A program made the translations under genes and the position numbers. The notes beneath the pieces were generated by a model, which did no database searches, was not told the origin of the DNA, and saw only the letters and a list, made by a program, of their open reading frames with translations. Below are positions 49,784 to 51,077 of a DNA stretch of 64,000 nucleotides, piece after piece (position 1 is the first letter of the stretch; every line of letters starts with the position of its first letter). This DNA comes from Alcanivorax sp. 24 (lineage in GTDB: Bacteria; Pseudomonadota; Gammaproteobacteria; Pseudomonadales; Alcanivoracaceae), in contig NZ_SNUA01000013.1 of assembly GCF_004360225.1 (NCBI RefSeq), forward strand, positions 1-64,000, given 5' to 3'.

Positions 49784-49840
49784 GCATTACAGACCGTACT
49801 ACGAAGCCGCTGTGGGAGATTCTATGGTGCCCTGCAATGC

Positions 49841-50785
49841 TTAAAAGAGCTTTGCGGGGCAATATTCTTGTTGTTGCTTCATCAGGGCGAAGGCGGTGCG
49901 GGCGATCTTTCGGGCCAGGATGACCAAGGCTTGCGTGGTGTGCAGTCCCCGGTCCCGATAGCGCTGGTAGAAGGCACGCCAGACGGGATGTCGAGAGGCA
50001 CTCATGGCGGCACAGTGCAGCAGTCGCCGGACCTCCGTATCCCCTTGCTTGGTCAGCTTGCGTTTGCCTCTGAGCGTGCCGGAGTCACGAACCCGGACAT
50101 CCAGCCCCAGGAAGGCCACGAAGGCATCGCTATTCTTGAAGTCCCCTCTCAGGAAGGCCATGACCAAGGCGATGGCGGTGATCTCACCGACCCCGTTGAT
50201 CGCGTCGCATCGCTGGACCTGAGCCTGTAAGCCGGCGGTGCTCACCGCGCCCTTGAGCCGTTTCTGAATCACAGTGTCGACTCGATCCATCTCGGCGATC
50301 AGGGCCTGCAGCGGGGCCTTGAGCTCCGGCTCTCCGCTCAGGCTCTGGCGCAACGCGGTGCGGGCCTTGACCAAGGCGGCCCGGCGACGCAGCAGGCTCT
50401 GCAGCACCCGGTACGTCTTTGGGGGCGGGCTCCACGGGCGTAACTCGTCTTTCTCCTTGTGCAGATGGCGCGCCAGCAACTGGGCATCGGCCAGATCCGT
50501 CTTGGCCCGTCCTCCAACGCCCTTGCGGTAGTTACTGAGGCGGTAACCGTCCACCACATAGACCCTATGGCCTTTGGCGTGCGCGCGCTCGGTGAGGTCC
50601 ATGTGATAGGTACTGGTCGCCTCAATGGCGATATCGCAGCCCTTGGGGAGCGTGGCCAACCATTGGCGAATGGCCTGGGGGGTGTTGTCGATGGTCAGGG
50701 TTTGGTTCCCGTTCAGCAGATAGATGACCAGATCGTCCTTGGCCACATCAATCCCGATCTCCAGGCAGTTTGCCGGCATTGCCAT
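49841..50785 (-). CDS. IS110-family transposase (DEDD recombinase)
   Basis: The 314-residue enzyme has the N-terminal DEDD RuvC-like domain: LEIGIDVAKDDLVIYL, IAIEATSTYHMDLTE and GRAKTDLADAQLLARHL. The C-terminal Transposase_20 domain contains INGVGEITAIALVMAF, AFLGLDVRVRDSGTLRGKRKLTKQGDTEVRRLLHCAAMSAS with the catalytic serine. IS110 enzymes recombine DNA under the guidance of an element-encoded RNA, without target duplication. The gene looks intact and full length, so the element may be active. Confidence 0.95.
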   Translation of the reverse strand: MAMPANCLEIGIDVAKDDLVIYLLNGNQTLTIDNTPQAIRQWLATLPKGCDIAIEATSTYHMDLTERAHAKGHRVYVVDGYRLSNYRKGVGGRAKTDLADAQLLARHLHKEKDELRPWSPPPKTYRVLQSLLRRRAALVKARTALRQSLSGEPELKAPLQALIAEMDRVDTVIQKRLKGAVSTAGLQAQVQRCDAINGVGEITAIALVMAFLRGDFKNSDAFVAFLGLDVRVRDSGTLRGKRKLTKQGDTEVRRLLHCAAMSASRHPVWRAFYQRYRDRGLHTTQALVILARKIARTAFALMKQQQEYCPAKLF

Positions 50786-50826
50786 GGGGTGCCCCTCTCA
50801 GCTAGGTTAAATGGGCTTGTCGGGGC

Positions 50827-51005
50827 GCACCGTAACGCTGGCTTGCAGAGTATCGTCGGTCTGAGTGCGTGCTCAGCCGATGGATTCCTTATCGGCGTTT
50901 GAAGGTGCGGGGTGGGGCCGTATCTCCCACAGTCTGTACCCTAGGGTCAGAAGCTTGCCTGGTCCCTCCACCCCGACAAGTCTCTTCTTTCTAAGACTTG
51001 CCGGG
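50827..51005 (-). ncRNA. Candidate bridge RNA of the IS110 element
   Basis: A 179-nt stretch upstream of the transposase, same strand, folds by eye into a series of hairpins. First: CCCGGCAAGUCU pairs with AGACUUGUCGGG (51005-50994 with 50983-50972, one G-U). Second: an internal loop flanked by GUGG/CCAC (part of 50968-50974 and 50909-50915) with GGCAAGCUUC on one side, a central hairpin (50933-50951, UCUG..CAGA), and CUGUGGGAGAU on the other. Third: a domain closed by GCACC/GGUGC (50908-50904, 50831-50827) with hairpins at 50876-50896 and 50861-50876. The second loop matches the target; the third contains GAAUC and AUAC, which agree with the element ends. Not confirmed experimentally. Confidence 0.65.
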
Positions 51006-51015
51006 TAACCATACA

Positions 51016-51077
51016 AGCTTGCTTGCGAGCGAATCTTGGGACCTGAAAGCTCATTCGCTTGCAAGCAAGCTTCCCAC
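51016..51077. repeat. Right part of the REPIN split by IS110
   Basis: AGCTTGCTTGCGAGC hairpin, a spacer, then the complete inverted REP GCTTG-CAAG-CAAGC with TTCCCACGG. Its matching left head lies at 49797-49817, so the element cut this REPIN. Confidence 0.85.

What the first reader, a model, noticed from the sequence alone, without database searches (positions are those of the whole stretch)
50827..51005. Bridge-RNA candidate whose first loop spells the REP target of its own IS110 element
Seen: on the minus strand, about 179 nt between the element end and the transposase fold into a 5' hairpin (12 bp, one G-U), a second domain with an internal loop, and a third domain. In the second domain one loop side is GGCAAGCUUC and the other CUGUGGGAGAU, separated by a small hairpin. 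The REP target in element orientation is GCAAG-CT-CCCACAG. The first side repeats GCAAGCT from the left half; the second side is the complement of ATCTCCCACAG, spanning the right junction. The third domain contains GAAUC and AUAC, agreeing with the element ends AGAAT-CT and GTATGG. Known: IS110 enzymes use a bridge RNA with one loop for target and one for donor. Inference: this is such an RNA, programmed for the REP family.
Basis: partly seen in the sequence, partly recalled or inferred. Interest (0 to 1): 0.9.

Follow-up and report, generated by a model that had tools for sequence, protein, structure and literature searches.

The report
Jumping gene's RNA address for repeats
A small mobile DNA element carries an RNA whose loop spells out the repeat it jumps into, and sister copies carry other spellings that fit other versions of the repeat; the machinery is of a known kind, but this is a clear natural case of it being re-aimed.

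Summary
The element (49819-51015, minus strand, CT on both sides) is an IS110-group insertion sequence with a transposase related to IS621. The RNA upstream of the gene folds as 5' hairpin, target loop and donor loop; the target-loop helices covary.

Over 66 insertion sites (20 genomes, 21 left guides), guides fit their own flank at 5.25 of 7 positions (class mean) against 3.19 when permuted; 0 of 100,000 permutations reach it. Shuffling only within genomes: 1 of 200,000. The right guide pairs at 7 of 7 in 31 of 32 copies with both ends read (27 exactly, 4 with one G-T wobble). A relative carries the unbroken REP pair with one CT.

The kind is known: bridge RNA, and IS621 already targets REPs. 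New here: one genome holds three left-guide versions that fit three REP hairpin classes, while the right guide stays on the REP tail.

Against: L005, three G002 copies, L076, L078, L133 and two G709 copies match poorly or less well. Contig-end copies come from collapsed assemblies. Transcription and activity were not tested.

The parts
49819..51015 (-). IS110-group element without its two CT core copies (1197 bp)
   Evidence: ends read; empty site in a relative
51016..51017 (-). left copy of the CT core dinucleotide
   Evidence: single CT in the empty site of G001
49817..49818 (-). right copy of the CT core dinucleotide
51016..51034 (-). left part of the interrupted REP: ATTCGCTCGCAAGCAAGCT (hairpin arms and core)
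   Evidence: REP family counted
49810..49818 (-). right part of the interrupted REP: CT-CCCACAG, the conserved tail
51053..51077 (-). second REP in inverted orientation next to the first (REP pair)
   Evidence: same pair without insertion in G001
50827..51005 (-). bridge RNA, approximate extent (ends not mapped)
   Evidence: folds; covariation of its first half
50972..51005 (-). 5' hairpin
50968..50974 (-). target-loop stem, 5' side GGGGUGG (overlaps the last bases of the 5' hairpin, which compete for them)
50952..50960 (-). left target guide AGGCAAGCU, same letters as the left flank GCAAG-CT
50934..50950 (-). small hairpin between the two target guides
50924..50932 (-). right target guide CUGUGGGAG, complement of CT-CCCACAG
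50922..50923 (-). AU, complementary to the last two bases of the donor end (place of the IS621 handshake guide)
   Evidence: IS621 from passages of PMC11208158
50909..50915 (-). target-loop stem, 3' side CCACCCC
50827..50908 (-). donor-binding loop (GCACC/GGUGC outer stem)
50883..50890 (-). left donor guide AAGGAAUC (6 of 8 against ATAGAATC)
50841..50853 (-). right donor guide AU ... GCAAG(C)
   Evidence: invariant AU and GCAAGC in 14 of 14
49841..50785 (-). transposase, 314 aa; D13, E55, D97, D100, S235 at the IS621 catalytic positions
49832..49837 (-). TTGCAG in the right end, 17 bp before TATGGT of the left end once the ends are joined: possible promoter of the circle
   Evidence: no shuffle control

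Best explanation
The stretch encodes the bridge RNA of an IS110-group element that inserts into REP hairpins. In the excised circle the joined ends would form a promoter for the RNA. The RNA binds the joined ends with its donor loop and a REP with its target loop, and the transposase recombines the two at the shared CT. The left target guide reads the 3' arm of the REP hairpin, which differs between REP classes; the right guide reads the conserved tail CTCCYAC; the core lies where arm meets tail. Sister copies carry different left guides that fit different REP classes, which is natural re-aiming by a few base changes. Shown here: anatomy, fold, guide/flank agreement, empty site. Inferred: transcription, complex formation, strand exchange, and that the guide changes caused the change of sites.
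For: Transposase and catalytic residues of IS621. Fold and covariation. Left guide against flank: 66 sites, 21 guide classes, 5.25 of 7 against 3.19 +/- 0.24 permuted, 0 of 100,000; within genomes 1 of 200,000, own guide strictly best at 24 of 28 sites. Right guide 7 of 7 in 31 of 32 copies, 4 of them with one wobble, and its variable base goes with the flank (8, 0, 2, 7; Fisher p 0.0023). Right ends found without their left end: CTCCCAC in 22 of 22. Empty site with one CT in G001. REP family: 157 sites against 0 for the reversed pattern.
Against: No transcript or activity shown. L005 sits at a site that a sister guide fits better (6 against 4 of 7); three G002 copies fit the sister guide better by one base; L076, L078 and L133 fit at 3 of 7; the G709 copies fit only with a one-base offset. 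Within G677 and G002 alone the shuffle is not significant (0.50 and 1.0). Many copies of the own genome, G012 and G022 are contig ends of collapsed assemblies. The covariation term of the 14-sequence fold is slightly unfavourable (0.42). The last base of the left guide is A, not U, in about half of the copies (33 of 66 agree at -1). The junction promoter is not seen in 8 of 21 ends, and 2 more depart from it.
Confidence: 0.94

Rival explanations
1. The stretch is only a structured leader that regulates the transposase, and its likeness to REP is a relic of flanking DNA that was picked up once.
For: ISPpu9, another IS110-family element in REPs, was reported to have two RNAs of about 180 nt that regulate its transposase (PMC8450116, passages). 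The stretch lies directly before the gene.
Against: A relic would not follow the flank of each copy: permutation between and within genomes. The two guides lie on the two sides of one internal loop and match opposite strands, as in IS621.
Confidence: 0.03
2. The transposase recognises the REP hairpin by its shape or tail, and the guide only tunes affinity; site choice among REPs is loose.
For: Sites lie at the border of hairpin and tail; the three REP forms tried fold as single-strand hairpins; L005 and the G709 copies sit in REP-like sites with poor guide match.
Against: Copies with different guides in one genome occupy different hairpin classes. Against the REP classes among the first 100 listed sites without one tandem array (78), 3 of 4 and 5 of 6 copies in the class of their own guide have binomial probabilities 0.010 and 0.0002. 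L097 sits in a repeat with another tail and has another right guide.
Confidence: 0.03

Closest known systems
IS621 of E. coli and its bridge RNA (PMC11208160, PMC11208158; passages)
   Same: Transposase type and catalytic residues, RNA upstream of the gene, 5' hairpin plus two loops, guide order, CT core, 7-base right target, AU ... CAAG right donor guide, REP as target.
   Different: Transposase distant (phmmer E 1.4e-22); other REP; several left-guide versions in one genome.
ISPpu9 and ISPpu10 of Pseudomonas putida (PMC1525189, PMC8450116; passages)
   Same: IS110-family elements in REPs; ISPpu9 leaves a 2-bp AG repeat, CT on the other strand. By recalled REP letters the place in the REP is the same.
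   Different: Their sequences were not compared here; the ISPpu9 RNAs were described as regulators, and one lies downstream of the gene.
ISEc11 and ISXne4 with their seekRNAs (PMC11187229; passages)
   Same: Natural re-direction of an element by change of the target-matching stretches of its RNA.
   Different: IS1111 type with the RNA downstream and reversed guide order; two elements with transposases 72% identical, not sister copies in one genome.

Membership tests
IS110 group (IS621 type) | DEDD RuvC-like plus Tnp-Ser transposase | tested here: met
   PF01548 and PF02371 over cut-off, NF033542 over cut-off, five catalytic positions aligned with IS621
IS110 group (IS621 type) | Non-coding RNA region upstream of the gene, in the left end | tested here: met
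   50827-51005 lies between the left end and the start codon at 50785
IS110 group (IS621 type) | CT core shared by both ends and the target | tested here: met
IS110 group (IS621 type) | RNA fold with 5' stem-loop, target loop and donor loop | tested here: met
   covariation counted for the target loop only
IS110 group (IS621 type) | Left and right target guides that covary with the flanks | tested here: met
   exceptions told there
IS110 group (IS621 type) | Donor guides that pair with the element ends | tested here: inconclusive
   AU and GCAAGC invariant in 14 of 14, left donor guide 6 of 8; the donor ends hardly vary, so covariation cannot be tested
IS110 group (IS621 type) | Promoter across the joined ends of the circle | tested here: inconclusive
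   TTG 17 bp before TATG[GT]T in 11 of 21 ends, not in the other 10; no shuffle control
IS110 group (IS621 type) | RNA expressed, bound by the transposase, needed for recombination | not testable with these tools
   needs RNA sequencing and an assay
IS1111 group | RNA region downstream of the gene, top-strand match first | tested here: not met
   RNA upstream, bottom-strand match (left guide) first; features of the group from passages of PMC11187229
TIGR-Tas | Tas protein over the model's cut-off | tested here: not met
   NF052498 21 bits against a cut-off of 100

The most novel reading that the evidence does not exclude
The left guide is not only drifting under selection but is rewritten from REP DNA, for instance by conversion between guide and repeat arm, so that a lineage of elements follows its host's REPs while the right guide stays fixed on the REP tail. 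Room for it: in two clades of chosen distinct sequences the left guide differs more than ten times as much as the aligned segment outside guides and 5' hairpin, and about three times as much as that hairpin; some copies match their own site at 7 of 7 (L044, L003, L079; L063). Plain mutation and selection explain the same data.
Probability: 0.05. Interest if true: 0.85.

Novelty: new member of a known kind. Interest (0 to 1): 0.45.

Why it matters
It is a natural experiment on how bridge RNAs change their aim. In one genome three versions of the RNA sit with the three repeat classes that they fit, and G025, G002 and G677 hold two versions each. The split guide follows the anatomy of the REP: one half reads the arm that varies, the other the tail that hardly does. 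That makes guide evolution, mismatch tolerance and the interplay of insertion sequences with REP populations testable with ready-made pairs of guide and site.

Tried and rejected
Rfam scan of the window: 0 matches at gathering score. tblastn against plasmids at E 1e-60: none. Protein search: 8 of 46 family genomes at E 1e-40 and 6 of 390 order genomes at E 1e-60, own genome included in both; the RNA model reached 9 of 369 class genomes, own included. Four copies of about 30% identity in the genus (L045, L046, L047, L050) were looked at and left out of the counts, since their RNA is of another type. A rigid pattern missed nearly all left ends and was replaced. A free best-promoter scan chose other boxes in many ends, so the junction promoter is called inconclusive. 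A 2 x 2 table typed by hand (9, 0, 2, 7) counted one class too many; one search recounts it as 8, 0, 2, 7, with the same p to the digits shown.

Rows and readings: L075, L081 and L155 were dropped as the same genome, flank and guide. The G709 guides were read at the fixed position and counted as misses. L097 was not found by the RNA model (68 matches in 69 sources); it was added by its place from the protein search, is in the left-guide counts, and is outside the 31 right-guide rows: the fixed reading gives 5 of 7, a reading by eye two bases over gives 7 of 8. In one search, 26 loci were scanned and 22 showed the right end ATAGAAT-CT; L013 and the three unrelated L045-L047 did not. The representatives were chosen as distinct sequences, partly for their different loops, so its rates may overstate the left guide.

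Considered and rejected: plain leader RNA; recognition of REP by shape alone (see rivals).

Full report
What is there. On the minus strand an element runs from 51015 to 49819 between two copies of CT. Its one gene, 49841-50785 (314 aa), is an IS110-type transposase: PF01548 and PF02371 over their cut-offs, NF033542 'IS110 family RNA-guided transposase' 196.6 bits over a cut-off of 140, and matches to IS621 (E 1.4e-22) and ISCro4 (E 2.6e-22) in the PDB. D13, E55, D97, D100 and S235 stand at the catalytic residues of IS621 (alignment, positions, residues from passages of PMC11208158).

The RNA. An alignment of 14 relatives gives 53 pairs, 12 with a change on both sides in at least one sequence; the covariation energy term is slightly unfavourable, 0.42, and that consensus pairs part of the 5' hairpin with the 3' end instead. 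On 33 distinct RNA segments the 20 pairs of the target loop are formed in 98.4% of cells, 9 pairs are changed on both sides against 4.2 +/- 0.9 in shuffles, and slid versions pair in 37-56% of cells. That alignment was fitted to the model structure, which leans towards it.

A covariance model of the first 110 positions found copies in 10 of 46 genomes of the family and in 9 of 369 genomes drawn from the class, own included in both. With copies found by protein search, 69 copies were read and 3 dropped as the same site: 66 sites, 20 genomes, 21 distinct left guides. At the columns -4 to -7 the guide agrees with its own flank in 82, 86, 89 and 71% of sites, against 32, 24, 40 and 30% for other guides; at -8 and -9 in 58 and 65%, against 42 and 57%; at -1 in half, own and other alike; at -2 and -3 nearly always, own and other alike. 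The class-averaged match is 5.25 of 7; permuting guides among classes gives 3.19 +/- 0.24 and 0 of 100,000 reach it. Shuffling only within the four genomes with more than one guide (28 sites) gives 1 of 200,000; the own guide is strictly best at 24 of 28. Single genomes: G000 0.001, G025 0.018, G677 0.50, G002 1.0.

Exceptions. L005 carries AGGCUGGCU before a CAAG-class REP (4 of 7, a sister guide 6). The G002 copies L049, L052 and L054 (AAGCAAGCU) fit GGGCAAGCT at 5, the sister guide at 6. L076, L078 and L133 fit at 3 of 7. The two G709 copies fit at 0.5 on average in the fixed frame and otherwise only with a one-base offset. The contig-end copies of G000, G012 and G022 stop inside the element, so their loops come from collapsed repeats of the assembly.

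The right guide. In 32 copies both ends were read. In 31 the seven bases CTCCYAC pair with the guide, 27 exactly and 4 (all in G002) with one G-T wobble; the base that varies goes with the flank (8, 0, 2, 7 over 17 guide/genome classes, Fisher p 0.0023). The 32nd, L097, has another tail and another guide: 5 of 7 in the fixed reading, 7 of 8 by eye two bases over. Right ends without a left end, from the own genome, G012 and L084, begin CTCCCAC in 22 of 22 found among 26 loci scanned.

The site. All 13 genomes of the genus hold the neighbouring gene. G001 has there an unbroken pair of inverted REPs ending GCAGGCAAGCTCCCACAGCGGCTTCGTAG, with a single CT, which fixes the ends and the 2-bp repeat; G012 has an altered REP arm and G002 no such pair (six loci compared). 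In the own genome ATTCGC-N(8-16)-GCTCCCACRG occurs 157 times and the reversed pattern 0 times. Among the first 100 sites listed, 22 lie in one tandem array; in the other 78 the arm before the core is CAAG in 17, TGGG in 12, CTGG in 11, GCAG in 10, others fewer. The three guide versions of this genome read CAAG, CTGG and GCAG. The three forms fold as DNA hairpins with the core C as the last base of the arm. So the left guide reads the variable arm and the right guide the tail. Three Y1-type transposase reading frames, the kind that goes with REPs (recalled), are in the genome.

Pace of change. Among five relatives chosen as distinct sequences the left guide differs at 0.243 per pair and column, the right guide at 0, the 5' hairpin region at 0.085 and the rest of the aligned segment at 0.018; in a second clade of seven 0.293, 0, 0.088 and 0.024.

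Donor loop and promoter. AU and GCAAGC of the right donor guide are invariant in 14 of 14; in IS621 A157-U158 and C162-G165 pair with the donor. The left donor guide agrees at 6 of 8. In the circle, TTGCAG of the right end would stand 17 bp before TATGGT; TTG at that spacing is seen in 11 of 21 ends, not in the L064-L074 clade (8) nor in L133 and L135, without a shuffle control. IS621 is reported to make its promoter in this way.

What is known. [quoted passage not shown] PMC11208158 (passages) gives the structure. PMC1525189 (passages) reports IS110-family elements in REPs. PMC11187229 (passages) reports natural re-direction in another pair. So the kind is known. Library searches for IS110 or bridge RNA with REP or with guide evolution, for REPIN/RAYT with IS110 and for Alcanivorax with IS110 showed no title or abstract start on guide versions within one genome following REP classes; only the listed papers were seen, and most subscription journals are not held.

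Verdict. Observation confirmed, interpretation supported: a new member of a known kind, with a clear case of sister copies aimed at different repeat classes within one genome.

Noticed in passing
G000:C12:104619-106691 (own genome, outside the window): Tandem array of units about 89 bp apart, each with a REP arm CACG or CGCG before CTCCCAC; no guide of this genome reads it, but the guide of A. hongdengensis (AAGCACGCU) would.
   Followed up: partly
G000: C12:2883-3203, C16:66121-66375, C21:55146-55394: Three Y1_Tnp (PF01797) reading frames, possible REP-associated transposases.
   Followed up: no
L006-L011 (own genome): A second, about 88% similar RNA family with left guide TAGGCAGCU at six sites, five of class GCAG and one GCCG; the right ends L019-L023 appear to be its other end.
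   Followed up: yes
L005 (G000:C8, end of contig): Copy with the CTGG guide sitting in a CAAG-class REP: off-target, guide changed after insertion, or assembly artefact.
   Followed up: partly
L064-L082 clade, and several distant elements: The last base of the left guide is A against the core T, so pairing at the second core base is not kept there.
   Followed up: partly
L046 (G001), L045 (G003), L047 and L050 (G009): Other IS110-type elements of about 30% identity in the genus with different left ends; L046 also lies in a REP (GGGCAAGCTC).
   Followed up: no
ISPpu9 of P. putida (paper PMC8450116, passages): Its two RNAs of about 180 nt, described as regulators of the transposase, may deserve a second look as bridge-type guide RNAs, since the element lies in REPs with an AG (CT) repeat; inference, not tested.
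   Followed up: no
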